Shown here piece after piece: positions 766 through 17,689 of a stretch of DNA of 64,000 bases (position 1 is its first letter; each line of letters begins with the position of its first letter). The DNA lies in assembly GCF_040958095.1 (NCBI RefSeq), contig NC_091237.1:11190723-11254722 (forward strand). The letters are read 5' to 3'. The position numbers and the translations under genes are program-made. The notes beneath the pieces are model-generated. The model was not told the DNA's origin. It worked only from the letters and a program-made list of their open reading frames with translations, and made no database searches. The stretch comes from Procambarus clarkii (lineage: Eukaryota; Arthropoda; Malacostraca; Decapoda; Cambaridae).

Positions 766-1027
766 GTGCAACTGCTCTACAACGACGACTCCCTCGGCCA
801 CGAGGTCAAGTTCGTGCTCAAGCGGCTGGAGATCCTGTACACGGACCCGCCCGGCCTCCGTCGACCCAACGACATCGACACCTTCCTCACCAACTTCTGC
901 ACGTGGCAGCGGCAGGAGAACCCGCCGGAGGACACCCACGCCCTCCACTGGGACCACGCCCTCATCCTGACGGGCCTTGACGTCTACACACTCACCTCCA
1001 GCGGCAAGCTCAACTCTCAGGTCGTGG
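766..1027 (+). CDS. ADAMTS exon 1 of visible set: metalloprotease domain, N-terminal part
   Basis: Acceptor CCCCACAG precedes 766 and donor GTAAGT begins at 1028. Encodes residues 1-87 of the visible protein plus one base. The opening QLLYNDDSLGHEV is the ADAMTS catalytic-domain strand and helix usually found before the active site. FCTWQRQ and WDHALILTGLDVY are the classic segments that precede the zinc helix. It opens at codon phase 0 with GTG (Val) after the acceptor, not an initiator, so the gene must continue upstream of the window. The overhanging G joins GT of the exon at 4589 to make Gly, giving a continuous VVGLAPVAGMC typical of the family. Confidence 0.93.
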
Positions 1028-1073
1028 GTAAGTCCCTTGGGGCTAGGGGAAGGGAAGGAGTAGCGTGTGTGTG

Positions 1074-3110
1074 TACTCACCTATTTTACTCCCCTATTTG
1101 TGCTTGCAGGATAGAGCTCTAGCTCTTGGACCCCGTTTTTCTAGCCGTTGGTTGTCTAATGCAATGACTCTTGACCTATTTCCCTTTCATTCCTGCTGTT
1201 AAAGTTATGAATGGAGTTAGCCTCTACAACCTGCTCCTTTAGGTCATTCCATTCACTCACTAACCTTATGCTAAAATAAAATCTTTCTAACATCTCTATG
1301 ACACATGTGAGTCTCAAGCTTCCATCCGTGCCCCCTTGTTCTGTTGTTATTCATTGTAAACATTTCCCCTGTTTACACCGTGTCAACCCCTGTAAGTATT
1401 TTATACATCTGTATCATGTCCTCTCTCCCTCCTCCTTTCTAACGTCGTCAGGTTTAGTTCCTTCAGTCTGTCTTCGTGCCTCATCCCTCGCAGCTCTGGG
1501 ACGAGTCTCGTTGCAAACTTCTGCACCTTTTCAGAGCTTCCTTATGTGTTTTTTTTTTTAAGATGGGGCTCCAGGATGGGGCGGCATACTCTAAGACTGG
1601 CCTCACATAGGTGGTATACAGTGATCTAAAAGCCTTCTTATTCAAGTTTCTGAAGGATGTTCTGACTTTTGCCAGGGTAGAGTATGCGGCTGACGTTATT
1701 CTATTTATATGAGCCGCTGGAGTTAGGTTTGGTGTTATGTCCACTCCCAGGTCTCTTTCTCTAGTCGTTATAGGGAGGTAGTTTTCCTTCATCGTATATT
1801 GGACTTTGTCTCCTGGCTCCTATCCCCATTTCCATCACCTTACACTTGCTAGTGTTGAACTCTAGCAGCCATTTCTCAGACCTGCTCTGCAACCTGTTCA
1901 AGTCGTTCTGGAGAATCTTGCAATCCTCATCTGTCTCATTAGTTTTGCATCATCTGCAAACATTGACATAAAAGACTCAACTCCTGCAGTCAAGTCATTT
2001 ACATAACTGAGGAATAGTATGGGACCCATACTATTAGCCATACTACCATACCATATAGACCCATAGGAGCCGGTCGGCCGAGCGGACAGCACACTGGACT
2101 TGTGATCCTGTGGTCCTGGGTTCGATCCCAGGCGCCGGCGAGAAACAATGGGCAGAGTTTCTTTCATCCTATGCCCCTGTTACCTAGCAGTAAATAGGTA
2201 CCTGGGTGTTAGCTAGCTGTCACGGGCTGCTTCCTGGGGGTGGAGGCCTGGTCGAGGACCCGGCCGCGGGGACACTAAAAAAAAGCCCCGAAATCATCTC
2301 AAGATATAACCTCAAGATAACCTGACCCAGCACCGATCCTTGAGGCACCCCGCTTGTTACTCTACGCCAGTCCCACTCCTCGCCCCTCACCGTCACTCTC
2401 TGACACCTGTCTGTTAGGTAATTCCTTACCCAAGACAGTGCGTCTCCGTCTACTCCCGCCTGCCTCTCAAGTTTGTATAGTAGCCTTCTGGGTAGTACTG
2501 TATCAAAGGCTTTTTGACAGTCCAGAATTATGCAATCTGCCCATCCTTCTCTGTCTTGCCTTGTTTTCGTTACCTTATCATAAAACTAAGAGGTTTGTCA
2601 GACATGATTTCCCTTCTCTAAAGCCATGTTGTTGTTTACTTACAAATCCAATTCTTTCTTGGGGTGCAACTAGTCTTAACCTTATAATTCTTTTAAGTAC
2701 TTTACTGGGGCTGCTTGTGAGCGACACTGGTCTGTTGTTAAGTGGCTCTTCCCTATATCCTTTCTTGTAGATTGGCACCACATTTGCCTTATTTCAGCAG
2801 CTGGACATTTTCCCCTGTGTAAGTGACTCGTTAAATATTAGTGCTAGAGGTATGCTGAGGACCTGTGCTGCTTCTTTTAACAGCCATGGTGATAGTCTTT
2901 CCCAGTAGCTGTAGTTACATCCAGTGATGCTAGTTGTATTCTTGCTTCCTCTGCGGTTACCTCTATATTTAGTAATTTCTCATCCTCGTCTAGCTCCGGG
3001 AGCTGTTCAGGCTCAGCAGTGAACACTCCAAGGAAGCTGGCATTGAGCTCCTAACAAAGTTATTTATAATTTTCTGTATACTGGCCTCCCCCATTTTCGT
3101 AACCTGATCA
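1074..3110 (-). mobile_element. Degenerate LINE (family alpha) with nested SINE
   Basis: Minus-strand reverse-transcriptase remnants of a Jockey/CR1-type non-LTR element. Read 5' to 3' on the minus strand: an upstream RT block at 2781-2578 (QHGFREGKSCLTNLL), a catalytic-motif block near 2050-1920 (GPILFLSYVNDL and MFADDAKLM) and a C-terminal block at 1790-1560 (RDLGVDITPNL, YTTYVRPVLEYAAPSWSP). Frames shift repeatedly, so it is dead. The 3' end lies only 47 bp beyond the first visible ADAMTS exon donor. A SINE interrupts it at 2066-2322. Confidence 0.85.
2066..2322 (+). mobile_element. tRNA-derived SINE, family A
   Basis: tRNA-like head GGTCGGCCGAGCGGACAGCA (A box) and GGTTCGATCCCAGGCGCC (B box), then a body with GAGAAACAATGGGCAGAGTT and a tail ending CATCTCAAGATA. 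The commonest SINE here (also 16022, 22518, 25470, 28036 and 50071, plus two diverged copies). Inserted within the LINE at 1074-3110. Confidence 0.85.
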
Positions 3111-3147
3111 CTTGGTTATTCACTGTCATTGTCCTTCACACCTATTC

Positions 3148-3232
<85 letters not shown>
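3148..3232. repeat. (GT)n microsatellite at a LINE 3' end
   Basis: About 42 GT units that run directly into the 3' terminus of the minus-strand LINE fragment at 3233 (GTACTCACCTAGTTGTGCTT). Confidence 0.95.
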
Positions 3233-3235
<3 letters not shown>

Positions 3236-3905
3236 CACCTAGTTGTGCTTGCGGGGGATGGGCTTTGGCTCTTTGGTCCGGCCTCTCAACTGTCAATCAA
3301 CTGGTGTACAGGTTCCTGAGCCTACTGGGCTCTATCATATCTACATTTGAAACTGTGTATGGAGTCAGCCTCCACCACATCACTACTTAATGCATTCCAT
3401 TTGTTAACTACTCTGACACTGAAGAAATTCTTTCTAACGTCTCTGTGGCTCATTTGGGTACTAAGTTTCCACCTGTGTCCCCTTGTTCGTGTCCCACCCG
3501 TGCTGAAGAGTTTTCTTTATCCACTCTGTCAATTCCCCTAAGAATTTTGTAGGTGGTTATCATGTCTCCTCTAACTCTTCTGTTTTCCAGGGTTGTGAGG
3601 TTCAGTTCTCTTAACCTTTCCTCGTAGCTCATACCTCTCAGTTCCGGGACGAGTCTGGTGGCATACCTCTGAATCTTCTCTGACTTTGTCTTGTGTTTAA
3701 CTAGGTATGGACTCCAGGCTGGAGCTGCATATTCCAGGAGTGGTCTGACATAAGTGGTATACAGGGTCCTGAACGATTCCTTACACAAGTTTCTAAAGGC
3801 AGTTCTTATATTAGCCACTCTAGCATATGCCGCTGATGATATCCTTTTAATGTGGGTATCGAGGGGACAGGTTCGGTGTGATATCAACCCCCAGATCTTT
3901 CTATT
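3233..3905 (-). mobile_element. 5'-truncated LINE alpha fragment (3' end of ORF2)
   Basis: Minus-strand translation from about 3887 gives HIKRISSAAYARVANIRTAF, YTTYVRPLLEYAAPAWSP and the family-typical LRGMSYEERLRELNL, then the 3' UTR (CTATCATATCTACA, GGGACCAAAGAGCC-like) and a (GT)n tail. Same family as the fragments at 13589-14460, 50618-52788 and 58752-59335. Confidence 0.88.
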
Positions 3906-4012
3906 TGAGAGAAAGGTTAGGTTAGACTGGCTGGCCTGGCCTCTGTGTGTGCGTGTGTGTACTTATCTATTTGTGCCTGCAGGACCGAGCATTGACTCTT
4001 GGATCCCGCCAA

Positions 4013-4013
4013 A

Positions 4014-4068
<55 letters not shown>
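4013..4068. repeat. (GT)n microsatellite flanking a tRNA gene
   Basis: About 27 GT units. A shorter (GT)n run at 4165-4190 lies on the other side of the tRNA gene. A LINE-tail-like segment (GTACTTATCTATTTGTGCCT) precedes it at 3958. Confidence 0.9.
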
Positions 4069-4084
4069 CCTGAAAATATACTTG

Positions 4085-4157
4085 CGACCTTGCCAGGATT
4101 CGAACCTGGAATCTTCTGATCCGTAGTCAGACGCGTTATCCGTTGCGCCACAAGGCC
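4085..4157 (-). tRNA. tRNA-Arg (anticodon ACG)
   Basis: The minus strand folds as a 73-nt tRNA. Acceptor GGCCTTG pairs with CAAGGTC (one G-U at pair 2) with discriminator G. D arm is GGCGCAACGGATAACGC; the anticodon stem GTCTGA/TCAGAA brackets the loop CTACGGA, so the anticodon is ACG. T arm is CCAGGTTCGAATCCTGG. A TTTT run for Pol III termination follows the 3' end (complement of 4075-4078). No intron and no SINE body follow it, unlike the tRNA-like SINE heads elsewhere. It sits in an intron of the ADAMTS gene, antisense, between two (GT)n tracts. A recent pseudogene cannot be excluded. Confidence 0.87.
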
Positions 4158-4588
4158 ATTAAATTGTGTGTGTGTGTGTGTGTGTGTGAGGGTACTAACC
4201 TATCAGTGACTACCGGAGTGAGGTGTTGGTCTCCACGCCCCGCCTACTACCAGCCTTGTTTATATCTGTTGCAATTTATAATTCCCTTGACACTCCAGTT
4301 CTGTGTCGTATTCGCTGTTGTAGTTGTAGACACGAGCATTATTTCTGAACTGTCCTTTCGACTCGTTTTCCTTTACATTTCCAACAATGTTCTCTTGCCT
4401 GTTTTCCCTGTTTATGAAGGCTGGCCTGGTCCATCTTGTGCTGTCTCTTCAGCATCTTATGTGTATATGTGATTCACAACACCAGTAACCTCCTATTATA
4501 TAATTGTCAACATAATGCTAAATCCACCTTGCTTACATGTTTATGGTTCCCGTGGTTCCTTCTCTCTGGTGTTGTGTGAATCGTGGAG

Positions 4589-4694
4589 GTCTGGCGCCGG
4601 TGGCCGGCATGTGCACCCGCTCCAGCTCCTGCACCGTCAACGAGGGCCGCCACTTCGAGTCCGTCTACGTCATGGCTCACGAGATTGGCCACAA
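4589..4694 (+). CDS. ADAMTS exon 2: zinc-binding active site
   Basis: Acceptor ends at 4588 (GTGGAG) and donor GTGAGT starts at 4695. Encodes visible residues 88-122 plus two bases. NEGRHFESVYVMAHEIGH carries the first two zinc histidines and the catalytic Glu (H118, E119, H122). The two overhanging A's join C of the next exon to make Asn, so the joined motif reads HEIGHNLGMRHD (118-129), matching HExxHxxGxxHD with the third His at 128. The acceptor pyrimidine tract is weak, but phase and motif continuity on both sides fix the boundaries. Confidence 0.94.
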
Positions 4695-4732
4695 GTGAGT
4701 AGGACTCGTCAGGCAGTGGGAACACCGGTTGG

Positions 4733-5250
4733 GTGTCTGACTGGAAGCTTAGGAGAGGGTGGTGGGCGTGGGTGTATGGCTGGAACCTTAGGAGAGGGTA
4801 GTGGGCGTGGGTGTATGGCTGGAACCTTAGGAGAGGGTAGTGGGCGTGGGTGTATGGCTGGTAGCTTAGGAGAGGGTGGTGGGCGTGGGTGTATGGCTGG
4901 AACCTTAGGAGAGGGTAGTGGGCGTGGGTGTATGGCTGGAACCTTAGGAGAGGGTAGTGGGCGTGGGTGTATGGCTGGAACCTTAGGAGAGGGTAGTGGG
5001 CGTGGGTGTATGGCTGGAACCTTAGGAGAGGGTAGTGGGCGTGGGTGTATGGCTGGAACCTTAGGAGAGGGTAGTGGGCGTGGGTGTATGGCTGGAACCT
5101 TAGGAGAGGGTGGTGGGCGTGGGTGTATGGCTGGAACCTTAGGAGAGGGTGGTGGGCGTGGGTGTATGGCTGGAACCTTAGGAGAGGGTAGTGGGCGTGG
5201 GTGTATGGCTGGAACCTTAGGAGAGGGTGGTGGGCGTGGGTGTCTGGAAG
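4733..5250 (+). repeat. 39-bp minisatellite in intron 2
   Basis: About 13 copies of a 39-bp G-rich unit (core GGAACCTTAGGAGAGGGTAG) starting roughly 40 bp after the exon 2 donor. Copies differ mainly at AACC/AGCT and TAG/TGG positions. Long ORFs here on both strands are artefacts of a unit length divisible by three. Confidence 0.95.
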
Positions 5251-5617
5251 GTTAGGAGAGCTTGAGAGGGTGGTGGTAAGCGACCGAGAGTTTCTGGCTA
5301 GACTGCTTGGAATAATTGGAGCTTGGAAGTGGACCGGGTAAGATAGAGGGAGGGACGAAGATGCTGGTGGATAGAAGAAAGGAGAGGGAGAGAATAGGGG
5401 GAAGGGAGAAAGAGAGAGGGCGTGGAGGCACCTCACTCTCTAGTACCGGAAGTGTTCGATTCATTCCCAGTGTGTACATATTTTTGCTTGTCCCATTCCG
5501 GAAGGCAGTTAGTGTAATGGACCTCTTATGACTTTATGATGTCAGTTTGTTGTGGGACTGAAGCGGAAGAGTTGTTTTACTAGTCCACAGAAAACGAAGG
5601 TAGGGTTAAGTAATTAT

Positions 5618-5785
5618 CAGGATAAAGCACTAAACCATTACGACTAGCACTTGCAAGGACAAGAATTTAGGAGAGTGACGGAGGAAAGAAATAGTTCCCA
5701 ACTACTTGGACGGTCGGGAATTGAACCCTGACCTGCAAGAAGTGAGACCGTCCCTCTACCGTTCAGCCCAAGTGGCTGGGCATAC
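5618..5785 (-). mobile_element. tRNA-derived SINE, family B
   Basis: Minus-strand copy with the head CCACTTGGGCTGAACGGTAG, GGGTTCAATTCCCGACCGTC B-box region and tail AATGGTTTAGTGCTTTATCC. A short ATT-rich stretch follows. Confidence 0.7.
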
Positions 5786-5837
5786 AGAAAACGTATATCA
5801 ATAATAATTATTATAATGATAACAGTAATAGTAGGAG

Positions 5838-6948
5838 TTGCAGGCATCCATCAGTCTCAGGAGACTAGGGAGTTGCACTCTGGTGTCGGCCTAATAACTA
5901 GCCGTTGCACTCTGGTGTCGGCCTAATAACTGGCCGTTGCACTCTGGTGTCGGCCTAATAACTGGCCGTTGCACTCTGGTGTCGGCCTAATAACTGGCCG
6001 TTGCACTCTGGTGTCGGCCTAATAACTGGCCGTTGCACTCTGGTGTCGGCCTAATAACTAGCCGTTGCACTCTGGTGTCGGCCTAATAACTAGCCGTTGC
6101 ACTCTGGTGTCGGCCTAATAACTGGCCGTTGCACTCTGGTGTCGGCCTAATAACTGGCCGTTGCACTCTGGTGTCGGCCTAATAACTGGCCGTTGCACTC
6201 TGGTGTCGGCCTAATAACTAGCCGTTGCACTCTGGTGTCGGCCTAATAACTAGCCGTTGCACTCTGGTGTCGGCCTAATAACTGGCCGTTGCACTCTGGT
6301 GTCGGCCTAATAACTAGCCGTTGCACTCTGGTGTCGGCCTAATAACTAGCCGTTGCACTCTGGTGTCGGCCTAATAACTGGCCGTTGCACTCTGGTGTCG
6401 GCCTAATAACTAGCCGTTGCACTCTGGTGTCGGCCTAATAACTAGCCGTTGCACTCTGGTGTCGGCCTAATAACTGGCCGTTGCACTCTGGTGTCGGCCT
6501 AATAACTAGCCGTTGCACTCTGGTGTCGGCCTAATAACTAGCCGTTGCACTCTGGTGTCGGCCTAATAACTGGCCGTTGCACTCTGGTGTCGGCCTAATA
6601 ACTGGCCGTTGCACTCTGGTGTCGGCCTAATAACTGGCCGTTGCACTCTGGTGTCGGCCTAATAACTGGCCGTTGCACTCTGGTGTCGGCCTAATAACTG
6701 GCCGTTGCACTCTGGTGTCGGCCTAATAACTGGCCGTTGCACTCTGGTGTCGGCCTAATAACTGGCCGTTGCACTCTGGTGTCGGCCTAATAACTGGCCG
6801 TTGCACTCTGGTGTCGGCCTAATAACTGGCCGTTGCACTCTGGTGTCGGCCTAATAACTGGCCGTTGCACTCTGGTGTCGGCCTAATAACTGGCCGTTGC
6901 ACTCTGGTGTCGGCCTAATAACTGGCCGTTGCACTCTGGTGTCGGTTT
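5838..6948 (+). repeat. 32-bp minisatellite (about 34 copies)
   Basis: Unit GTTGCACTCTGGTGTCGGCC plus TAATAACTGGCC (32 bp). Copies are near-identical apart from an ACTGG/ACTAG variant. The array starts in a segment CATCCATCAGTCTCAGGAGA that also occurs, unexpanded, at 30940-30990, so the array grew from a pre-existing dispersed repeat. Confidence 0.95.
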
Positions 6949-7007
6949 GGTAATAACACCAAATATAAACAAAGACTTATAACAAGACTTTCCCCCGTGA
7001 CCGCCAG

Positions 7008-7142
7008 CCTGGGGATGCGCCACGACGGGCTACAGGCCGGCAACAACTGCGACCCCGGCAGGTACCTCATGTCCCCCACGCTGGGGTCAGGCAAGATCAC
7101 CTGGTCCCCTTGCTCCAGGAGGTACCTCGACCACTTCCTCAG
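7008..7142 (+). CDS. ADAMTS exon 3: third zinc His and Met-turn
   Basis: Acceptor GACCGCCAG ends at 7007; donor GTGAGT at 7143. Encodes N123 (shared) to residue 167 plus two bases. LGMRHDG supplies the third zinc histidine (128), and RYLMSPTLGSGKITWSPCS is the Met-turn region (M144) of ADAMTS enzymes. SRRYLDHFLR closes the catalytic domain. The donor and the last 17 exon bases are the founding unit of the tandem array that follows. Reading past the donor meets TGA immediately (AGG TGA). Confidence 0.95.
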
Positions 7143-7580
7143 GTGAGTCCCTCAGCTCCTCGATCACTTTCTTAGGTGAGTCCCTCAGCTCCTCGACCAC
7201 TTTCTCAGGTGAGTCCCTCAGCTCCTCGACCACTTTCTCAGGTGAGTCCCTCAGCTCCTCGACCACTTCCTCAGGTGAGTCCCTCAGCTCCTCGACCACT
7301 TTCTCAGGTGAGTCCCTCAGCTCCTCGACCACTTTCTCAGGTGAGTCCCTCAGCTCCTCGACCACTTTCTCAGGTGAGTCCCTCAGCTCCTCGACCACTT
7401 TCTCAGGTGAGTCCCTCAGCTCCTCGACCACTTCCTCAGGTGAGTCCCTCAGCTCCTCGACCACTTCCTCAGGTGAGTCCCTCAGCTCCTCGACCACTTC
7501 CTCAGGTGAGTCCCTCAGCTCCTCGACCACTTCCTCAGGTGAGTCCCTCAGCTCCTCGACCACTTCCTCAGGTGAGTCAC
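7126..7580 (+). repeat. 33-bp tandem array duplicating the exon 3 splice donor
   Basis: The last 17 bases of exon 3 plus the donor and 10-16 intron bases are repeated as a 33-bp unit. GTGAGT begins at 7143, 7176, 7209 and then every 33 bp to 7572: 14 copies of CAG|GTGAGT (the second is TAG|). Units differ mostly by TTTCTCAG versus TTCCTCAG. Confidence 0.96.
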
Positions 7581-7587
7581 TAGGCCA

Positions 7588-8062
7588 GGATTCAAGAACC
7601 ATTTACGTATCTATTTACGAACCTGCGTTTCTTTCCTCAGTCGTTGACGGCTTCGTTTGCGATCGTAAACTGGATCGTACTCCAGTTTACGATCTCCGGA
7701 GTACCAGGAGGTTGCAGACGAGGAGTCACAATAACGTGGCTGAAGTATGTTGACCAGACCACACACTAGAAGGTGAAGGGACGACGACGTTTCGGTCCGT
7801 CCTGGACCATTCTCAAGTCGATTGTGTCCAGTTCAGGAGAATGGTCCAGGACGGACCGAAACGTCGTCGTCCCTTCACCTGCTAGTGTGTGGTCTGGTCA
7901 ATACCAGGAGGTTGTTTATAACAACAATAACATTTGACCGGGGAAGTTCCTGTGCTCGTAAACTGTTTAATATATGTAAACAAAGCCGCTGATGATGGAG
8001 AAATGATGTACAGGTTTGTAAAGGACTTGCGTGTCTGCTTGGTGAATCCGGTCCCTGGCGCC
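7588..8062. mobile_element. MITE family E copy split by another repeat
   Basis: Left part (about 7588-7720) with TTCAAGAACCATTTACGTA and TTTCCTCAGTCGTTGACGGC, and right part (7905-8062) with CCAGGAGGTTGTTTATAACA and GTTTAATATATGTAAACAAA, are the two arms of the palindromic MITE seen intact at 17418-17688. They are separated by family F sequence at 7736-7905. Confidence 0.7.
7736..7905. mobile_element. Foldback element family F
   Basis: Inverted arms TGACCAGACCACACACTAGA ... GTGTGTGGTCTGGTCA and GGACGACGACGTTTCGGTCC with its complement, short loop near 7820. A near-perfect palindrome of about 165 bp; no ORF. Lies inside the MITE E copy. Confidence 0.8.
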
Positions 8063-8134
8063 TGCTCCAGCATTTACGGATAAAAGTCATTTCGTACATA
8101 AGACGGAATTATTTTTGGTGTAAAAGACTATCCA

Positions 8135-8630
8135 GCATTTCCTTATCTAACCTGACCTATCCTTATCGAACTTTAACTTACCTAGCCTAACCTTATTTCA
8201 CCCTAGCTAACCTAGCCTAACCTTATTTAACCCTAGCTAACCTGACCTAATCTTATGTGACCTAGCCATATCTAACCTGATCTGACCTTACCTAACCTGA
8301 CCAAACCTTTTCTAACCTAACCTTATCCAACCTAACCATTTCTAACCTGACCTAACGCTGTCTAACCTGAACTAACCCTATCTAACCTGACCTAGCCTTA
8401 TCCAACCATATCTAACCTGACCTAATCTAACCAAAACATATCTAATCAGATATAACCTTATCTAATCTAACCATGTGCAACCTAGCTATACCTAACCATA
8501 TCTAAACTGGCCTAACCATATCTAATCTGACATGGCCTAACCTGACCTCACCATATGTAAGCTGACCTGACATAATCTAATGGCCTAACCTAACCTAGCC
8601 AAATCTAACCCAACCTTACCTAACGGCTTT
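8135..8630. repeat. Degenerate CCTAA-type array
   Basis: About 500 bp of imperfect 5- to 10-bp units such as CTAACCTGACC and CTAACCTTAT. It resembles decayed (CCTAA)n, the complement of the arthropod telomere repeat TTAGG, but no perfect run persists, so a telomeric origin is only an inference. Confidence 0.7.
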
Positions 8631-8684
8631 ATATGCACGGATAACAATTTGAAAAATGAGCTGTGTGTGTGGGGAACGCCCGCG

Positions 8685-8726
8685 CACAGGCGTGCCAACG
8701 GAATGTACTCCGTTGGCACGCCTGTG
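8685..8726. repeat. Perfect 18-bp inverted repeat
   Basis: CACAGGCGTGCCAACGGA (8685-8702), 6-base loop ATGTAC, then its exact complement to 8726. Surrounding sequence 8730-9460 shows no gene; it includes a stretch (9140-9225) similar to 20128-20215. Confidence 0.85.
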
Positions 8727-9462
8727 TGTTTACCATTGTGACGTCATTAGCAAAGTTGGCAAGCATGTTTCTCTCTCTCCTCGTAACGACACTGTCAATA
8801 CTGTATTGAAAGGTAAAAAAGAATCCTATTCATACACCAGTGTCATGCAATTTGCTGAAATAGCCTAATGTGCCTCAGTTTTGCTGACAATGGTGGTGTC
8901 ATTAGTACAGTTACGGCGCCGAGGTTGGTACACCTGTTTGTTAGCGCATTTGACTCGTCAGTCAATCCGTTCTCCTAATAGAACGTTGGTCCGGGGCGCA
9001 TCCGATCCCACGATCGTCGTCGCCCCTAAATCAACACAACAACGTTGTATTTTGACGTATATTCTACATAAGGCCAAAAATTGTCGTACTAGAAAATGAT
9101 AGCGGCTGACGAAACTGACATAATCTCCCATTTTCTGTTTTGGGTTCTCTGGTAGGTTAGGATTAGGATAAGGGTAATTTACTACAACAGTTTCTTGATG
9201 TTAGGAAACCTTTGGAGGACGGGTTGCATCAGAAATATTTATAGAAGTTTGTCTTCGCTTTTGATTTAATTAGGCTGTTGACATGGCTGTCTGTTATGCA
9301 GAAACGGGGTCAGCAGTCGTCAGTTCCTGTTCCCACCTGTGTACATAAAAACAGAAAGGTAACAATGAAACAGAAGAGATATTTAATGAAGTCTCTTTGA
9401 ATTATTGTTAAGGTTCCCCTAAGATTATTTCCGCGTAAATGCAACACATGCTGCCAGCACAC

Positions 9463-10785
9463 ACCTGTGAGGTCAGTGTCACTGTTAGCAGAGGTGCGTG
9501 GTGACCTCTGTGAGGTTAGTGTCACTGTTAGAAGAGGTGCGTGGTGACCTCTGTGAGGTTAGTGTCACTGTTAGCAGAGGTGCGTGGTGACCTCTGTGAG
9601 GTTAGTGTCACTGTTAGCAGAGGAGCGTGGTGACCTCTGTGAGGTTAGTGTCACTGTTAGAAGAGGTGCGTGGTGACCTCTGTGAGGTTAGTGTCACTGT
9701 TAGCAGAGGTGCGTTGGTGACCTCTGTGAGGTCAGTGTCACTGTTAGCAGAGGTGCGTGGTGACCTCTGTGAGGTTAGTGTCACTGTTAGCAGAGGTGCG
9801 TTGGTGACCTGTGAGGTTAGTGTCACTGTTAGCAGAGGTGCGTGGTGACCTCTGTGAGGTCAGTGTCACTGTTAGCAGAGGTGCGTGGTGACCTCTGTGA
9901 GGTTAGTGTCACTGTTAGCAGAGGTGCGTGGTGACCTCTGTGAGGTCAGTGTCACTGTTAGCAGAGGTGCGTGGTGACCTCTGTGAGGTTAGTGTCACTG
10001 TTAGCAGAGGTGCGTTGGTGACCTCTGTGAGGTTAGTGTCACTGTTAGCAGAGGTGCGTGGTGACCTCTGTGAGGTTAGTGTCACTGTTAGCAGAGGTGC
10101 GTTGGTGACCTCTGTGAGGTTAGTGTCACTGTTAGCAGAGGTGCGTGGTGACCTCTGTGAGGTTAGTGTCACTGTTAGCAGAGGTGCGTGGTGACCTCTG
10201 TGAGGTTAGTGTCACTGTTAGCAGAGGTGCGTGGTGACCTCTGTGAGGTTAGTGTCACTGTTAGCAGAGGTGCGTGGTGACCTCTGTGAGGTCAGTGTCA
10301 CTGTTAGCAGAGGTGCGTGGTGACCTCTGTGAGGTTAGTGTCACTGTTAGCAGAGGTGCGTGGTGACCTCTGTGAGGTCAGTGTCACTGTTAGCAGAGGT
10401 GCGTGGTGACCTCTGTGAGGTTAGTGTCACTGTTAGCAGAGGTGCGTGGTGACCTCTGTGAGGTCAGTGTCACTGTTAGCAGAGGTGCGTGGTGACCTCT
10501 GTGAGGTCAGTGTCACTGTTAGCAGAGGTGCGTTGGTGACCTCTGTGAGGTTAGTGTCACTGTTAGCAGAGGTGCGTTGGTGACCTCTGTGAGGTTAGTG
10601 TCACTGTTAGCAGAGGTGCGTTGGTGACCTCTGTGAGGTTAGTGTCACTGTTAGCAGAGGTGCGTTGGTGACCTCTGTGACGTTAGTGTCACTGTTAGCA
10701 GAGGTGCGTTGGTGACCTCTGTGAGGTTAGTGTCACTGTTAGCAGAGGTGCATTGGTGACCTCTGTGACGTTAGTGTCACTGTTG
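9463..10785 (+). repeat. 43/44-bp minisatellite (about 30 copies) in intron 3
   Basis: Unit GAGGTTAGTGTCACTGTTAG + CAGAGGTGCGTGGTGACCTC + TGT, with an extra T in some copies (GCGTTGG). Each unit contains the dyad TGACCTC-TGT-GAGGTCA or its GAGGTTA variant. Confidence 0.95.
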
Positions 10786-10831
10786 TTACAAGTGTTTGGT
10801 GGCCCTGGTGACTCCTGTGCGTGTGAGCGAC

Positions 10832-11202
10832 CCGTTCTCGCACTTTCTTATAGTCAATATTGACTTATTAAATACGTGCATATGTGACATACTAAACATA
10901 CTAGTTTACCTTGAAAAGCTTCATAGAAAACACCGATCTTACCTAACCTTTTTAGTATGTTAATTAAGATAAGCATCTTATTGCTTCGTAATTACAATTA
11001 TTACTTAACCTATACCTATAATAGGTTAAGTAATAATTGTAATTACGAAGCAATAAGATGCTTATCTTAACATACTAAGAAGGTTAGGTAAGGTCGGTGT
11101 TTTCTATGAAGCTTTTCAAGGTAAACTAGTATGTTAAGTATGTCACATATGCACGTATTTAATAAGTCAATATTGACTATACGAAAGTGCGAGAACGGGT
11201 TG
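10832..11202. mobile_element. 371-bp near-perfect palindrome (MITE/foldback element)
   Basis: Two arms of about 180 bp are near-exact complements. CCCGTTCTCGCACTTTC at 10831 matches GAAAGTGCGAGAACGGG ending at 11199, and CTTAACCTAT (11004-11013) matches ATAGGTTAAG (11021-11030) around a 7-base centre. Differences are a few single-base changes. Flanked by GTGTGAGCGAC at 10821-10831 and 11203-11213, a possible target-site duplication. No ORF. Confidence 0.92.
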
Positions 11203-11311
11203 GTGTGAGCGACGTTGCCAGAATGTTAAGTAACACAATCTTCACACTAACGCAAGTCATTGGTCCTTCTTGTGCGTGCATAACTCTCACTCAAGCGTTG
11301 TAATTCTGCAG

Positions 11312-11418
11312 GTCACAGCAGTCGTCGTGTCTGCGGGACGTGTCTGCTCCCGAGGGTCACCAGATGGACCACGAGGCTAGCTCCCCACCCGGCCAGCGCT
11401 TCTCAGCAGACCAACAGT
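11312..11418 (+). CDS. ADAMTS exon 4: start of disintegrin-like domain
   Basis: Acceptor TAATTCTGCAG ends at 11311; donor GTGAGT at 11419. Encodes residues 168 (shared Arg) to 203 plus one base. Contains SQQSSCLRD and PPGQRFSADQQC, the family pattern PGxxYdAdxQC that opens the disintegrin-like domain. Its last Cys is completed by the next exon (T + GC), giving ADQQCMLKHG. Confidence 0.92.
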
Positions 11419-11499
11419 GTGAGTGCTTCCTTACTCCCGCCCTCAGTGTATGGCCATTCCATCCAGCGGACGAGCCCAAAGATATATTCATAAATGTTA

Positions 11500-12180
11500 A
11501 CATGTTATTCATTCAAAATTGGAATGTTCTGAAATATAAATTAATATTGTTATATATTAGCATATTTAGGCATTGGTTAGGTTAGGTGTTTAGGTTCTGT
11601 TGGCGATTATTTGTATTCAACCCGTTCTCTCACTAGGCTGGTTAAAGCAGCGGCCGTTCTCCCCAGACACATTCATTAATTTTACCATACTGTGTATTAC
11701 AAATCAGTTTGTTCTGATATATAAATTAATATTCTTATACATAAAAATTGTATGTATAAAAATATGTATGTATGTAAAATTGTATGTTTTACAATATACA
11801 TAATATTGTAAAACACCTAACCTAACCTACGCCAAACTATTGTATAGTTTGGTGTAGGTTAGGTTAGGTTAGGTTAGGTTAGGTTAGGTTAGGTTAGGTT
11901 AGGTGTTTAGGTTCTGTTGGTAATTATTTGTATTTATAAGTTCGTGGGTGAAGCATTTATAGAATTGTGGTTCGAGCAGAGGACGTCAGCGAAGCACTTG
12001 TTCCGGAAGTGTTCGAACGTCAGCAGTTGTGAGTCGTGTGTAAACCGTTTTTCATTCATAAACAGCGGGTTTGGTGGGTGCATGGAATCACTTTTGGGTC
12101 TTTGTTTGGAGGACGGGCTGGCGTCTGTGGGGTCGACCGCTGGATGTAATGGACTTGAGTTGACGACAGGTTGATTTATG
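11500..12180 (+). repeat. Dispersed repeat H with interstitial (TTAGG)n
   Basis: Two related blocks contain GTGTTTAGGTTCTGTTGGCG-type sequence; the second (11870-12075) matches the complement of 61812-62090 over about 200 bp. Between them is an AT-rich segment, a hairpin (CACCTAACCTAACCTACGCC ... GGTGTAGGTTAGG) and about 11 perfect TTAGG units at 11848-11904. Confidence 0.75.
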
Positions 12181-12578
12181 CATGAAAAACTGAGGACAGT
12201 GTTTAAATAGTACATTTAACACTTCTACTCAGCTCTTCACTTGTCAAAATTAATATTAAAAGCGAAATTTATCTCTAAAAGGACAAATAGATAGAGAACG
12301 AAATCAAAATAGATAGATTTAAAGATAGAGATAAAGAAAGAATGGAAATTGTGAGAGATGAAGATAGATCAAGAAATGTGTAGTTAGCGAGAGATTGAGA
12401 GAAAGGGAATGAGAGATTTCATGAAAGATAAAGACAGATATACTTAGAGAATGATCATAATAAAAAAATCAAAGTTCTTTAACCTCAGTTGTCACTGTTG
12501 TTGTTGTTGTTTCCGCTGGCAGTGATTAGGGGGGGGGGGGCTGAAGGTCATCACCAGACGCACGCACAGGTTAATACA
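12181..12578. other. Intronic, no gene recognised
   Basis: A/G-rich degenerate GATAGA-type low-complexity sequence (12250-12450), a GTT trinucleotide run near 12500 and a G10 homopolymer near 12530. No coding signal seen. Confidence 0.6.
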
Positions 12579-12617
<39 letters not shown>

Positions 12618-13490
12618 TACCTAAGTAATTACCTAAGTGTAGTTACAGGATGAGAGCTACGCTCGTGGTGTCCCGTCTTCCCAGCACTCTTTGTCATATA
12701 ACGCTTTGAAACTACTGACGGTCTTGGCCTCCACCACCTTCTCACCTAACTTGTTCCAACCGTCTACCACTCTATTTGCGAAGGTGAATTTTCTTATATT
12801 TCTTCGGCATCTGTGTTTAGCTAGTTTAAATCTATGACCTCTTGTTCTTGAAGTGCCAGGTCTCAGGAAGTCTTCCCTGTCGATTTTATCAATTCTTGTT
12901 ACTATTTTGTACGTAGTGATCATATCACCTCTTTTTCTTCTGTCTTCTAGTTTTGGCATATTTAATGCTTCTAACCTCTCCTCGTAGCTCTTGCCCTTTA
13001 GTTCTGGGTGCCACTTAGTAGCATGTCTTTGCACCTTTTCCAGTTTGTTGATGATATGGGCACCACATAGGTTTGTTCCTAAGATATGGGCACCACACAA
13101 CAGCTGCATATTCTAGCTTTGGCCTAACAAAAGTCATGAACAATTTCTTTAGTATATCGCCATCCATGTATTTAAAAGCAATTCTGAAGTTAGAAAGCAT
13201 AGCATAGGCTCCTTGCACAATATTCTTTATGTGGTCCTCAGGTGATAGTTTTCTATCTAGAACCACTCCTAGATCTCTTTCTTTATCAGAATTCTTTAAA
13301 GATTTCTCACATAATATATAGAATGTGTGGGGGTCTATGTTCTCCTATTCCACATTCCATAACATGACATTTATTAACATTAAATTCCATTTGCCAAGTG
13401 GTGCTCCATATACTTATTTTGTCCAGGTCTTCTTGAAGGGCATGACAATCATCTAAATTTCTTATCCTTCCTATTATCTTAGCATCATCA
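12579..13490 (-). mobile_element. LINE fragment (family beta), 3' part with (GT)n tail
   Basis: Minus-strand translation from about 13266 gives LSPEDHIKNIVQGAYAMLSN, KLEYAAVVWCPYLRNK, then WHPELKGKSYEERLEALNM, RRKRGDMITTYKIVTRIDKI and a C-terminal FANRVVDGWNKLGEKVVEA, the usual end of CR1/Jockey-type ORF2. An internal duplication of GATATGGGCACCACA (about 13050 and 13085) breaks the frame. The 3' end abuts (GT)n at 12579-12614. Confidence 0.85.
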
Positions 13491-13493
13491 GCA

Positions 13494-13504
13494 AACGTGT
13501 GTGT

Positions 13505-13588
<84 letters not shown>
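13494..13588. repeat. (GT)n microsatellite at a LINE 3' end
   Basis: About 46 GT units running into the 3' terminus of the LINE alpha fragment at 13589. Confidence 0.95.
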
Positions 13589-13590
<2 letters not shown>

Positions 13591-14460
13591 TCGCCTGCTT
13601 GTGCTTACCTAGTTGTACGGGGGTTGAGCTTCGGCTCTTTGGTCCCGCCTCTCAACTGCCAGTCAACCGGTGTACAGGTTCCTGAGCCTACTGGGCTCTA
13701 TCATATCTACACTTGAAACTGTGTATGGAGTCAGCCTCCACCACATCACTGCCTAATGCATTCCATTTATTAATTACTCTGACACTAAACAAATTCTTTC
13801 TAATGTCTCTGTGACTCATTTGGGCACTCAATTTCCACCTGTGTCCCATTGTGCGTGTGCCCCTTGTGTTAAACTGTCAGTATCTACCCTTTCAATTTCT
13901 TTGAGAATCTTGTATGCGGTGATCATGTACCCCCCAACTCTTCTGTCTTCCAGCGACGTGAGGTTTAATTCCCGTAGTCTCTCCTCGTAGCTCATACCTC
14001 TCAATTCGGGTACTAGTCTGTTGGCAAACCTCTGAACCTTCTCCAGTTTAATCTTATACTTGAGGAGATACCGATTCCATGCTGGCGCTGCATATTACAG
14101 GATTGGTCTGACATATGTGGTATACATGGTTCTGAATGTTTCCTTACACAAGTTTCTAAAGGCCGTTCTTATGTTGGCCGACTTGGCATATGCTGCTGGT
14201 CATATCCTCTTGATGTTGGTTTTAGGGGACAGGTCTGGCGTGATATCAACCCCAGGTCTTTCTCTCTCTCTCTCTCTCTCTCTGACTCTTGAAGTATTTC
14301 ATCTCCAAGATAATACCTTGTATCTGGCCTCCTGCTCCCTACACCTATCTTCATTACATTACATCTGCTTGGGTTAAACTCTAACAGCCATTTGTTGGAC
14401 CATTCCTTCAGTTGGTCCAGGTCTTCCTGAAGCCTCAAGCTGTCCTCCTGTCTTAATCCT
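13589..14460 (-). mobile_element. LINE alpha fragment, 3' half of ORF2
   Basis: Minus-strand: EDLDQLKEWSNKWLLEFNPS, NVMKIGVGSRRPDTRYYLGD, then decayed C-terminal block and 3' UTR ending in GTTGAGCTTCGGCTCTTTGG (plus-strand sense) and (GT)n. A short (TC)n run at 14263-14284 sits in the coding part. Confidence 0.85.
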
Positions 14461-14504
14461 TCTCTTGTTAGTGTTTATATTCCGCCCGTCCTCTTGTGTA
14501 CTGC

Positions 14505-14935
14505 TGTCCCTGCCTCCCCTCTCCCTCCCTGCCTCCCCTCTCCCTCCCTGCCTCCCCTCTCCCTCCCTGCCTCCCCTCTCTCTCCCTGCCTCCCCTCTCC
14601 CTCCCTTCCTCCCCTCTCCCTCCCTGCCTCCCCTCTCCCTCCCTGCCTCCCATCTCCCTCCCTGCCTCCCCTCTCCCTCCCTGCCTCCCCTCTCCCTCCC
14701 TGCCTCCCCTCTCCCTCCCTGCCTCCCCTCTCCCTCCCTGCCTCCCCTCTCCCTCCCTGCCTCCCCTCTCCCTCCCTGCCTCCCCTCTCCCTCCCTGCCT
14801 CCCCTCTCCCTCCCTGCCTCCCCTCTCCCTCCCTGCCTCCCCTCTCCCTCCCTGCCTCCCCTCTCCCTCCCTGCCTCCCATCTGCCTCCCTGCCTCCCCT
14901 CTCCCTCCCTGCCTCCCCTCTCTCTCCCTGCCTCA
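14505..14935. repeat. 19-bp pyrimidine-rich minisatellite (about 22 copies)
   Basis: Unit GCCTCCCCTCTCCCTCCCT repeated up to 30 bp before exon 5, where it may lengthen the pyrimidine tract upstream of the acceptor. Overlapping ORFs on both strands in all frames are artefacts of this array. Confidence 0.95.
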
Positions 14936-14966
14936 CAAGAGAAGACTGACTGGGTACCTCCTACAG

Positions 14967-15109
14967 GCATGCTGAAGCACGGAGCGGGGAGTCACCACGC
15001 CGACTCCCAGCCTCTGGAGGAGATCTGTCAGGACCTGCACTGTCGCCGCGACCACTACACCTGGACGTCCCACCCAGCCCTCGAGGGCACCTCCTGTGGC
15101 AACCATAAG
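14967..15109 (+). CDS. ADAMTS exon 5: disintegrin-like domain, Cys-rich centre
   Basis: Acceptor CCTCCTACAG ends at 14966; donor GTAAGT at 15110. Encodes C204 (shared) to residue 251. EICQDLHCRRDHYTW and HPALEGTSCGNHK match the disintegrin-like pattern in which GTxCGxxKWC follows. The exon ends at phase 0 and the next begins with TGG TGC (WC), completing CGNHKWCKRGRC. Confidence 0.94.
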
Positions 15110-15221
15110 GTAAGTCCCCCTTGTCTCACTCACGGCTCGCATCGCCCTGCCTCCCTCATTATTCCTCCTCCTTACCCTGCCTACCTCACCATGCTTAAAA
15201 CATGGCCTTCCTCACCTACGG

Positions 15222-15540
15222 TCCACGGCTAACCATAGCCCGTGCTTCTTGCCCTGCTCCTGTGCCAGGTAAGTTACGGGCTCACCATAGCCCGTGCTAC
15301 TCGGAACTTGTTCAGAGTAGCTGAATCTATAACAACAACAACACCTACGGTCCAACTACTTGGGCTGGACGGTAGATCGACGGTCTTGCTTCATGCAGGT
15401 TGGCGTTCAATCCCCGACCGTTCAAGTGGTTGGGCACCATTCCTTTCCCCCGTCCCATCCCAAATCCTTATCCTAACCTCTTCCCAGTGCTATATAGTCG
15501 TAATGACTTGGTGCTTTCATCTGATAATTGCCTTCCTGAC
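15222..15540 (+). repeat. Repeat G followed by a family B SINE
   Basis: 15222-15340 repeats GGCTCACCATAGCCCGTGCT with GAACTTGTTCAGAGTAGC and an (AAC)n end. 15345-15535 is a SINE B copy with head CTACTTGGGCTGGACGGTAG, GCGTTCAATCCCCGACCG and tail region GTGCTATATAGTCGTAATGA. Confidence 0.7.
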
Positions 15541-15693
15541 CTACGTACAAGAGAGCATCATGAACGAACACGGTACAAATGTATTACAAATCCCTTGTTA
15601 CGACTCCTTAGTTCCCTATGCGTCTGTTTTAACCTTCTATGCTTATTACAATTTTATATATATATTTTCATTCGAATTCTTGCCCTGACTCAG

Positions 15694-15905
15694 TGGTGCA
15701 AGCGAGGACGGTGTCAGGAGAACTCCGAGGCTCCAGCCCTCTCGCCGTCAGCCTCCCTCGTGTCGTCGGCGTCCCAGGGAGCGTCCGGGAGCGTGGGAGG
15801 GAAGTGGGGGGCGTGGTCCGAGTGTCGCTCCGCCTGTCTCTACGGCGTCGACGGCGTCCTCTCCTCTGGCAGCTCGGGCCTCGCCTTGTCTGAGAGGCGG
15901 TGTGG
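15694..15905 (+). CDS. ADAMTS exon 6: end of disintegrin-like domain and first TSP1
   Basis: Acceptor TGACTCAG ends at 15693; donor GTAAG at 15906. Encodes residues 252-321 plus two bases. WCKRGRC closes the disintegrin-like region. A Ser/Ala-rich linker (SPSASLVSSASQGASGSV) leads to KWGAWSECRSACLYG, the start of a TSP1 repeat with a WxxW tryptophan pair. The usual CSxTCGGG is replaced by CRSACLYG with a Gly/Ser insertion before SERRCG, a variant TSP1. The exon codes in a GC-rich style unlike the flanking introns. Confidence 0.92.
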
Positions 15906-15909
15906 GTAA

Positions 15910-16000
15910 GTTGTTTTAGATTCAGCTACTCCGAACAAAACGTTCCAAGTAGCACGGGCTATGGTGAGCCCGTAGTGGGCTTACCTGGCACAGGAGCGGG
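15910..16000 (-). repeat. Dispersed repeat G, minus copy
   Basis: Complement of the AGTAGCTGAATC / GCTCACCATAGCCCGTGCTA block, starting just after the exon 6 donor. Confidence 0.55.
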
Positions 16001-16021
16001 GCTGTAACTGCCCTCTTGTGT

Positions 16022-16266
16022 GGGGTTATCTTGAGATGATTTCGGGTCTTTTTAGTGTCCCCGCGGCCCGGTCCTCGACCAGGCCTCCACCCCCCAGGAA
16101 GCAGCCCGTGACAGCTGACTAACACCCAGGTACCTATTTACTGCTAGGTAACAGGGGCATAGGGTGAAAGAAACTCTGCCCATTGTTTCTCGCCGGCGCC
16201 CGGGATCGAACCCGGGACCACAGGATCACAAGTCCAGCGTGCTGTCCGCTCGGCCGACCGGCTCCC
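16022..16266 (-). mobile_element. tRNA-derived SINE, family A
   Basis: Minus copy with head GGTCGGCCGAGCGGACAGCA, GGTTCGATCCCGGGCGCC and tail TTATCTTGAGATGATTTCGG (plus-strand view). A perfect 15-bp hairpin (TATTCCACACTACTG/CAGTAGTGTGGAATA) follows at about 16278-16311. Confidence 0.85.
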
Positions 16267-16351
16267 TACGTCCGGCATATTCCACACTACTGCTAACAGT
16301 AGTGTGGAATACTGGAATACACTAACGTCACTAACGGGGTAAGTGTGGCGC

Positions 16352-16443
<92 letters not shown>
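16352..16443. repeat. (TA)n microsatellite
   Basis: About 45 TA units. Confidence 0.97.
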
Positions 16444-16448
<5 letters not shown>

Positions 16449-16513
16449 CACGCAGAGTGCGAGGTGTGCTCTTGTGTGGGTAGCTGCAGCTAGTGGCTAC
16501 TCTTGTAAACAAC

Positions 16514-17250
16514 AATGGCGCGCATTATGACCCCACAACAAGCCCTGAACATGCTCTGTCTGCCGTTTGACGTCGAGATTGACAGACTAGTGGAGCACGG
16601 ATGTACAGTAGAGGAATATTCAGAGTGGTTGGAGAGTTGCAGGTTAACGAGGAGCTGGGACGACAGCGACGAAATGGGAAAATAATCACCAGGAAGACAC
16701 TGATTGAGGTGTCAAACAACTTGTGTGTTTACAGGGAGAATCCTTGACCAGAAACCCTTGAAGCAGGCCAGCAATACATCCCAATAAAAACGCGGAAGGA
16801 AAAAAGTTGTTTAGTATGCCAAAGTGCCCGATATGGATAGAACCTGCTACACGAATGCAAGAAAAAATTGAATATGCTTTCCAGGGACAACGGTTGGAGA
16901 CCGTGGACAGAACGAACAATATATTGTCAGCCAATGGGATCAAACCCATTGTTTGCCTCTCAGTAGGTGGACACGGTATGTGCCGAGGTAGGAGCGAGGA
17001 GTTGCTAGACAGATTATATATATATATATAGGATTAGTAGGCGAGTCAGAGGCTTAGGGCCCGCGCAGGAATATCCCTGCAAACAAAAAAAAATCAACAT
17101 AACACTCCTCAAGGTGGACTACAACCAAAAAAGATGAATTAAATGCACACAGAAAAATAAACACATTATTGCACTAACAGAAACATGGATGAATGCAGAA
17201 AACAGAGAACTATGTAGAGGAATATAAAATTACATAAGAATATATTTTAT
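16514..17250 (+). mobile_element. LINE 5' fragment: ORF1 remnant and start of endonuclease
   Basis: Translation from 16514 opens MARIMTPQQALNMLCLPFDV, followed after frame breaks by PIVCLSVGGHGMCRGR and, near 17160, HYCTNRNMDE-type sequence whose alternate frame reads IIALTETWMNAEN, the first motif of AP-type LINE endonucleases. The segment GCCCGCGCAGGAATATCCCT (17059-17078) recurs on the opposite strand near 46600-46620. Confidence 0.6.
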
Positions 17251-17417
17251 GATTAATTTCTAATCTCATATTTTACCGGGTAGAGCTGGTGCCAGAGTCC
17301 CCCCCATCTTCATGGGGACGGTTATGGGAGCTAAAAGTATTTTAGTGGTAGTGATAGGCATGCCACTCATTTTGGCCATCTATCATGCACAGTTGTGTGA
17401 GGCTAGCCCTAAGCGTC

Positions 17418-17688: not shown

Positions 17689-17689
17689 C

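What the first reader, a model, noticed from the sequence alone, without database searches (positions are those of the whole stretch)
7126..7580. A splice donor tandemly duplicated 14 times at exon 3 of the ADAMTS gene
The 33-bp unit contains the last 17 exon bases, the exon-intron border and the start of the intron, so GTGAGT in good donor context occurs at 7143 and every 33 bp to 7572. Each unit also has a pyrimidine-rich stretch ending in CTCAG, so it could act as an acceptor too. Using any downstream donor keeps the TGA that follows AGG at 7144-7146, so mis-selection would end the protein straight after the catalytic domain. The array could act as a splice-site decoy or a switch to a short catalytic-only form. 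Arrays seeded across an exon border are unusual.
Basis: partly seen in the sequence, partly recalled or inferred. Interest (0 to 1): 0.75.

Follow-up and report, generated by a model that had tools for sequence, protein, structure and literature searches.

The report
Crayfish splice donor copied fourteen times
In a crayfish protease gene the DNA at the end of one exon, including the signal that marks where the following intron starts, has been copied 14 times in a row, and the same kind of stutter appears at exon ends of some other genes of that genome, which makes it a natural test of how cells pick one splice signal among identical copies.

Summary
A 33-bp minisatellite (7125-7578) starts inside a coding exon (7008-7142) of an intact ADAMTS adt-1-like gene and repeats its donor 14 times. 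The contig is Procambarus: an NCBI 'isoform X2', placed on a contig of identical length, equals the window's other exons at 863 of 863 residues. Thirteen of 14 units carry CAG|GTGAGT (copy 2 TAG) behind a pyrimidine tract, so they resemble donor and acceptor, but lack a consensus branch point. Of 574 enumerated splice paths, 28 are stop-free, giving two products: normal inclusion, or in-frame skipping of the exon. The NCBI isoform is the skipped one; no catalytic-only protein was listed. The array is not alone: of 15 other similar loci in the genome, 8 (5 of 12 with paralogues grouped) have the first donor at the end of a likely coding exon. That sample is biased towards donor motifs. Best reading: donor-border minisatellites arise repeatedly here and are tolerated because donor 1 alone gives normal mRNA; whether they cause exon skipping needs RNA.

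The parts
7125..7578 (+). 33-bp minisatellite, 14 copies, first copy straddling the exon 3 / intron 3 border
   Evidence: Tandem Repeats Finder; copy-by-copy listing
7143..7148 (+). Donor 1 (CAG|GTGAGT), the donor that gives a protein colinear with homologues
   Evidence: tied third of 2112 GT sites
7176..7577 (+). Donors 2-14, every 33 bp, all GTGAGT; 12 of 13 preceded by CAG, copy 2 by TAG
7144..7146 (+). TGA kept in frame if a donor after the first is used
   Evidence: translations, enumeration
7008..7142 (+). Coding exon (E3 of the window model; 135 nt, starts and ends in phase 2) with LGMRHD and ...YLDHFL; in-frame cassette
   Evidence: homology and colinearity
4589..4694 (+). Exon E2, encodes ...VMAHEIGH, ends phase 2
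11312..11418 (+). Exon E4 (SQQSSCLRDV...), by position the start of the disintegrin-like part
   Evidence: no Pfam match of its own
766..53244 (+). Adt-1-like ADAMTS gene, 15 exons in the window, one open frame ending in a stop at 53244; residues 1-337 of P0125 must lie upstream of the window
5872..6945 (+). Unrelated 32-bp minisatellite (33.6 copies) ending 62 nt before exon E3, so E3 has arrays on both sides

Best explanation
A minisatellite grew by tandem duplication out of the 3' border of one exon of a crayfish adt-1-like ADAMTS gene. Because the unit spans the border, it copies the donor and, since the exon end happens to be pyrimidine-rich and to end in CAG, an acceptor-like site as well (an AG|GT dual-type site). 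Shown: anatomy, gene, frame consequences, similar arrays at other exon ends of the same genome. Inferred: the array is mostly a mutational product that persists because use of donor 1 removes all of it with the intron, and later zero-length steps (in and out at the same copy) leave no trace; other uses of the array keep a stop and should be degraded. Inferred and less sure: the array lowers correct use of exon E3, so some transcripts skip it, giving the annotated in-frame isoform without half of the zinc site.
For: Fourteen donors at identical steps whose first copy is conserved coding sequence. The gene is intact: 15 exons join to one frame. Enumeration of 574 paths gives two stop-free products, E3 without insert (14 paths, all leaving E3 at donor 1) and E3 skipped (14 zero-length paths). 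NCBI isoform X2 (P0125) equals the window model minus E3 at 863 of 863 residues, and its contig length, 22321902, is that of the window's own contig, so the exon was very probably present in that sequence. Seven other decapod and krill proteins aligned (P0121-P0124, P0126-P0128) contain the exon; P0091 ends before it. Recurrence: at 8 of 15 other loci (5 of 12 after grouping paralogues) the first donor of the array is at a likely coding exon end, with homology support for a class B GPCR and a Cys-loop channel and weak support for a Sidestep-like Ig exon.
Against: No RNA was available, so use of any array site is unseen. 546 of 574 enumerated paths carry a stop, so tolerance needs a real preference for donor 1; yet I recall (Hodson et al. 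2012 and older work, not held) that of two equally strong donors the one nearer the intron is often preferred, which would be harmful here. The skipped isoform is one NCBI model; isoform X1 was not seen, and a cockroach model (P0076) skips the same exon, so skipping may be an ordinary or mis-annotated event. The other loci were found with a query that itself holds the donor motif; 7 of 15 show no convincing coding exon, and two of the five groups that do (C11, C58) have no outside homology. Copy-number variation, which neutrality predicts, was not testable.
Confidence: 0.55

Rival explanations
1. Dual-specific ratchet: array copies act as acceptor and donor in turn. From exon E2 the spliceosome jumps to an array AG, regenerates a donor there, and then splices to E4, so E3 is bypassed and a full-length but catalytically dead ADAMTS is made. 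The array is a cause of the annotated isoform and may set its level by copy number. (Overlaps with the skipping part of the best explanation.)
For: As acceptors copies 3-14 score 10.2-10.6 and copy 1 9.1, above the true E3 acceptor (7.4); copy 2 scores 6.5. As donors they are among the best of the gene. None of the 307 AGGT sites outside the array in 700-53300 equals the array consensus on both counts. Zero-length use gives exactly the annotated product. In Drosophila a ratchet point needs a downstream donor to define a short cryptic exon (passages of PMC8605326); here one lies 33 nt downstream.
Against: No full yUnAy branch-point match lies 14-55 nt upstream in the seven array copies printed (10 of 12 true acceptors have one), though a random site would have one only about half the time (own estimate). 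Simple one-step skipping gives the same mRNA. The acceptor models rest on 12 or 15 sites. P0076 shows the skip in a cockroach whose DNA was not seen.
Confidence: 0.2
2. Splice-site decoy or switch: later donors are used on purpose to end the protein after the catalytic domain.
For: All donors are strong: U1 pairing energy -12.3 kcal/mol for 13 of 14 and -10.8 for copy 2; only 1 of 2098 other GT sites in 766-28200 is as good as the consensus. The TGA is kept for later donors.
Against: No near-identical truncated protein among the 120 listed of 148 in the first search, whose length range (299-952 aa) would hold one of about 505 aa. The stop lies far upstream of the last exon, so decay is expected (general knowledge). 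The annotated alternative product is the skipped one.
Confidence: 0.05
3. Pure neutral minisatellite: only donor 1 is ever used, exon skipping in the NCBI model is an annotation slip, and the array has no effect on transcripts.
For: The window is full of minisatellites, and random placement of 18 arrays would give 2.66 exon overlaps on average, so one overlap is not surprising. An automated cockroach model skips the same exon. In a C. elegans test of a doubled donor doublet, the upstream copy was used more (passage of PMC8865678).
Against: The NCBI model lies on a contig of the same length as the window's, which contains the exon, and all of its other 14 window exons are exact. Why 13 strong later donors would never be used is not explained.
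Confidence: 0.3

Closest known systems
Tandem arrays of dual-specific splice sites, human UBC and VCX3A (Duan et al. 2024, PMC10809524; abstract, passages, results section on dual sites and discussion seen)
   Same: Every repeat unit holds an AG|GT that can be read as donor or acceptor, so splicing can remove whole units; the authors argue such repeats are less harmful because they can be spliced out.
   Different: There the repeat is protein-coding and the intron itself is a multiple of the unit. Here the array lies at the border of a long ordinary intron (7143-11311, 4169 nt, not a multiple of 33) and retained units carry a stop.
Intron gain by tandem duplication of an AGGT segment, including 24-bp multi-copy repeats in two fission yeast genes and a potato RdRp case whose duplication crosses an intron-exon border (passages of PMC4974935)
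   Same: Tandem copies of a short segment with AGGT, in the potato case across an existing border.
   Different: No new intron is shown here; the copies multiply an existing donor.
Human internal tandem repeats at exon-intron boundaries in segmental duplications (passages of PMC2812944)
   Same: Minisatellites of about 30 bp, some at exon-intron boundaries, that change gene structure.
   Different: There on average 4 copies and primate paralogues; here 14 copies, and about 120 at another locus of the genome.
Drosophila ratchet points of recursive splicing (passages of PMC8605326)
   Same: Juxtaposed acceptor and donor (pyrimidine tract, CAG|GTGAGT), each with a donor a few tens of nt downstream.
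   Different: Ratchet points are mostly lone sites in long introns; here 14 in tandem, 33 nt apart, at an intron's start and without a consensus branch point.
Adt-1-like ADAMTS of arthropods (ADAMTS16/18-like names in databases)
   Same: The host gene is an ordinary member: HEIGHNLGMRHD zinc motif, colinear protein.
   Different: The multiplied donor. The relatives' DNA was not seen, so whether theirs is multiplied is unknown.

Membership tests
Minisatellite | Head-to-tail units of roughly 10-100 bp, nearly identical | tested here: met
   33 bp, 13.8 copies, 98% matches
Minisatellite | Copy number varies between individuals | not testable with these tools
   Only one assembly; the array matched itself alone at 100% in the genome
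Dual-specific splice-site repeat (UBC type) | AG|GT core in each unit with donor and acceptor resemblance | tested here: met
   Donor and acceptor scores
Dual-specific splice-site repeat (UBC type) | Intron length is a multiple of the unit and embedded in the repeat | tested here: not met
   Intron 7143-11311 is 4169 nt and runs far beyond the array (exon borders)
Dual-specific splice-site repeat (UBC type) | Same site used as donor and as acceptor in RNA | not testable with these tools
   No RNA reads
Recursive-splicing ratchet point | Acceptor and donor juxtaposed as pyrimidines, CAG|GTRAGT | tested here: met
   13 of 14 copies; copy 2 has TAG
Recursive-splicing ratchet point | Branch point upstream | tested here: inconclusive
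   No full yUnAy 14-55 nt upstream in the seven copies printed; degenerate branch points exist
Recursive-splicing ratchet point | Splicing intermediates or lariats at the site | not testable with these tools
   No RNA reads
Intron gain by AGGT tandem duplication | A new intron absent from relatives | not testable with these tools
   Relatives were seen as proteins only, which do not show intron positions
ADAMTS (adt-1-like) | Reprolysin zinc motif HExGHxxGxxHD | tested here: met
   HEIGHNLGMRHD across E2/E3; Reprolysin_3 just above its cut-off for E2 alone (23 against 22.4 bits)
ADAMTS (adt-1-like) | Thrombospondin type 1 and Adt-1-like domains | tested here: inconclusive
   Single exons match below the curated cut-offs (TSP_1 E 0.0039, Adt-1 E 0.001); the whole protein aligns with decapod adt-1-like proteins

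The most novel reading that the evidence does not exclude
Crayfish genomes carry a class of minisatellites born from their own exon ends. Each copy is a donor-plus-acceptor site, so the arrays work as splice ratchets: zero-length steps through them leave no trace or skip the exon in front, and all other uses put a stop into the message. In adt-1 the 14-copy array drives in-frame skipping of the zinc-site exon, turning an active protease gene into a mixed source of active and dead protein, tuned by copy number.
Probability: 0.18. Interest if true: 0.9.

Novelty: new variant of a known kind. Interest (0 to 1): 0.7.

Why it matters
How the spliceosome chooses among identical strong donors, and how much repeat expansion at a splice border a gene can bear, are usually studied with artificial constructs of a few sites (general knowledge). 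Here nature supplies 14 donors at one exon, 13 of them identical over nine bases, and comparable arrays at exon ends of other genes in one genome. Existing crayfish RNA-seq could answer directly which copy is used and whether exons are skipped. It would also test the proposal that AG|GT-containing repeats are tolerated in genes because splicing can remove them.

Tried and rejected
Overlap of an array with an exon border as evidence of selection: rejected, because random placement of 18 arrays over 53 kb gives 2.66 overlaps on average and at least one in 94% of trials. The idea that any path leaving the exon at donor 1 is silent: rejected on recount, because leaving at donor 1, entering a later copy and leaving at a still later donor keeps a stop; 28 of 574 enumerated paths are stop-free. 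Special RNA structure: folding of 7100-7600 is ordinary (z -0.72). Each unit can form a hairpin that covers its donor (-6.7 kcal/mol), and the predicted open probability is 0.0009 or less at all 14 donors against 0.0001-0.0456 at 11 other donors of the gene; a handicap shared by all copies is possible, but it does not tell them apart. Assembly gap as the reason for the exon-less NCBI model: set aside, because that model's contig has the same length as the window's contig. Dual-type exon end as a requirement for array birth: not established. Query-selected cases score 7.4-12.4 as acceptors against 3.0 or less for 12 of 14 exon ends of this gene, but the one case found in passing (L010, minus strand, 2417) scores only 1.7. 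A donor motif in a minisatellite does not always mean an exon end: in 40 kb (8 of 40 randomly drawn positions, 5 kb each) 1 of 11 minisatellites has the motif and shows no coding exon upstream. An unbiased genome-wide count of donor arrays and a copy search for exon E3 did not complete because the tool was busy.

Full report
What is there. The window holds an intact adt-1-like ADAMTS gene on the + strand. Fifteen exons between 766 and 53244 join to one open frame with a single stop at its end. The exon at 7008-7142 (E3 here; 135 nt, starting and ending in phase 2) carries LGMRHD, which completes the zinc motif begun in E2 (HEIGHN), and ends ...YLDHFL, AG|. At 7125-7578 a 33-bp unit is repeated 13.8 times at 98% identity. 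Copy 1 is 18 bases of exon and 15 of intron. GTGAGT stands at 7143 and at 13 further places, each exactly 33 bp on. The changes between copies are C-to-T only, apart from the diverged tail of copy 14.

Gene and species. Joined exons E1-E4 (203 aa) hit arthropod adt-1/adt-2-like proteins, the best at about 72% identity over the whole stretch. Of the 120 proteins listed there (of 148 found), 92 cover the E3/E4 junction in a local alignment, none with an insertion within a few residues of it. In all 200 proteins fetched over the three searches, 174 contain E3 with both flanks, 2 skip it and 24 could not be judged. Of the 174, two (P0065, P0100) show inserted residues at the junction; P0065 looks like a model error and P0100 was not inspected. 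A second search with a longer query found decapod proteins, among them P0125, 'adt-1-like isoform X2 [Procambar...' (name cut off in the listing). From residue 338 on, P0125 equals the window model without E3 at 863 of 863 residues. Its listed contig length, 22321902, is the length of the window's own contig C88. So the window is Procambarus, most likely P. clarkii (inference; the genome held is 4.03 Gb), and the NCBI model very probably comes from this same sequence, which contains E3 and the array.

The skipped exon. P0125 joins E2 directly to E4 (...AHEIGHK|SQQSSCLRDV...), in frame, losing the third zinc-binding histidine and what I recall as the Met-turn. Seven other decapod and krill proteins aligned (Cherax, Panulirus, Homarus, Portunus, Petrolisthes, Meganyctiphanes, Penaeus) contain the exon; an eighth, from Halocaridina, ends before it. 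Against a special role of the array: P0076, an automated cockroach protein, skips the same exon exactly, while P0005 of the same genus has it. A third search with a 1245-aa construct containing E3 showed no second protein named Procambarus among 120 listed of 205, but a clustered member could hide one, so isoform X1 remains unseen. That NCBI isoform models usually rest on RNA-seq is recalled, not checked.

Strength of the sites. With a donor model from 11 other donors of the gene, 13 of 14 array donors tie for third of 2112 GT sites in 766-28200 and copy 2 ranks 18th. U1 pairing is -12.3 kcal/mol for 13 copies and -10.8 for copy 2, and 1 of 2098 other GT sites is as good as the consensus. With an acceptor model from 12 acceptors, copies 3-14 rank 4th to 12th of 1545 AG sites, copy 1 ranks 24th, copy 2 81st, and the true E3 acceptor 50th. 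None of the 307 AGGT sites outside the array in 700-53300 equals the array consensus on both counts. The models are small and E3's own acceptor was in the training set. A full yUnAy branch-point match 14-55 nt upstream exists for 10 of 12 true acceptors and for none of the seven array copies printed.

What the anatomy predicts. I enumerated 574 paths: enter at E3 or at any array AG, leave at any array donor, and, for entries at E3, optionally remove one inner piece. 28 have no stop and give two products: E3 with no insert (14 paths, all leaving E3 at donor 1 and, if they touch a later copy, leaving it at its own donor) and E3 skipped (14 zero-length paths). The other 546 carry the TGA. So the normal message needs donor 1, and the only other readable product is the skipped one, which is what the annotated isoform is. 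One-step skipping gives the same mRNA, so the model does not prove that the array is involved.

Which donor should win is open. In a C. elegans test with a doubled donor doublet the upstream copy was used more (passage of PMC8865678). I recall the opposite preference, for the donor nearer the intron, from work on duplicated strong donors in mammalian extracts; the paper I looked for is not held.

Not one of a kind. A search of the whole genome with the array found itself at 100% and 40 further matches at 15 other loci, all of which I fetched. At 8 of 15 (5 of 12 after grouping paralogues) the first donor of the array is the end of a likely coding exon in the sense direction: C11 (three paralogues, transmembrane exon, 29-bp unit), C83 (class B GPCR, 30-bp unit, 51 copies), C45 (two paralogues, Cys-loop channel, 41- and 30-bp units), C31 (Sidestep-like Ig exon, 32-bp unit, about 123 copies) and C58 (30-bp unit, about 52 copies). 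Homology support is good for C45 (Pfam E 1.3e-12, PDB glycine receptor E 6.6e-22) and C83 (PDB CRF receptor 2 E 5e-7; Pfam just under its cut-off), weak for C31 (Pfam V-set 8e-4, below its cut-off; PDB Sidestep 0.006), and absent for C11 and C58, where coding is inferred from the open frame only (the C11 paralogues are 98-100% identical over 50 residues, too close to prove constraint). The other 7 loci show no convincing coding exon (C81 doubtful). In the C45 genes the acceptor border of the same exon is also multiplied, in 31-bp units. A further small donor array ends a neighbouring open frame in one C11 gene, found in passing; that frame has no Pfam or PDB match. The sample is biased, because the query contains the donor motif. 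In 40 kb of randomly drawn stretches 1 of 11 minisatellites has the motif, not at a coding exon; in the window 1 of 22 has it, the one at E3.

Position of arrays. In the gene, 6 of 17 other minisatellites lie within 75 nt of an exon where 0.75 are expected if arrays avoid exons (none of 5000 trials reached 6). Random placement without that rule would give 2.66 exon overlaps, so the single overlap itself is not above chance.

Relation to what is known. The nearest published case I saw is the dual-specific splice-site array of UBC and VCX3A (PMC10809524), then AGGT tandem-duplication intron gain with multi-copy yeast cases (PMC4974935) and tandem repeats at human exon-intron boundaries (PMC2812944). 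What differs is a multi-copy array grown from an ordinary donor border, with similar arrays at unrelated genes of one genome. The rows listed by my searches of the open library (3 to 20 rows each, titles and abstract starts) showed no description of this in crayfish or ADAMTS; most subscription papers are not held. I call it a new variant of a known kind.

Judgement. Border-seeded minisatellite: near certain. Mostly mutational, with some exon skipping: my best reading, 0.55. Array-driven ratchet skipping: possible, 0.2 (this overlaps with the best reading). Catalytic-only switch: unlikely, 0.05.

Noticed in passing
window 766-28200: Minisatellites hug exons: arrays at 4730-5247, 5872-6945, 14507-14934 (pyrimidine-rich, 32 nt before an acceptor), 18950-19061, 19573-19648 and 24378-24524 lie 32-71 nt from an exon, and (TC)353 at 26422-27121 lies 15 nt after one; 6 of 17 minisatellites within 75 nt against 0.75 expected.
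   Followed up: partly
L014 2878-3007 and L019 3544-3753: In two paralogous Cys-loop channel genes the acceptor border of an exon is also multiplied (31-bp units spanning ...CCCCACACAG|GTAACTACAGCTG), so one exon is framed by border-derived arrays on both sides.
   Followed up: partly
L010 minus strand, about 2417-2560: Small donor-border array (27-bp, 5.8 copies) at the end of a second open frame of a C11 gene, about 1 kb from the exon with the larger array.
   Followed up: partly
L013 3506-4965: In the class B GPCR gene the 30-bp unit keeps phase 0 and the first copies have no stop, so use of the next few donors would insert VSPALLQSSQ repeats into the receptor.
   Followed up: no
P0076 (Periplaneta): An automated cockroach model skips exactly the same ADAMTS exon as the Procambarus isoform, which hints at a shared alternative exon or a shared annotation problem.
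   Followed up: partly
window 4084-4157, minus strand: tRNA-Arg(ACG) gene inside the intron before exon E2.
   Followed up: no
window introns, e.g. 12660-13344, 42648-45970, 50810-52786: Stop-to-stop frames that look like reverse-transcriptase fragments of retroelements in the introns (identification by eye).
   Followed up: no
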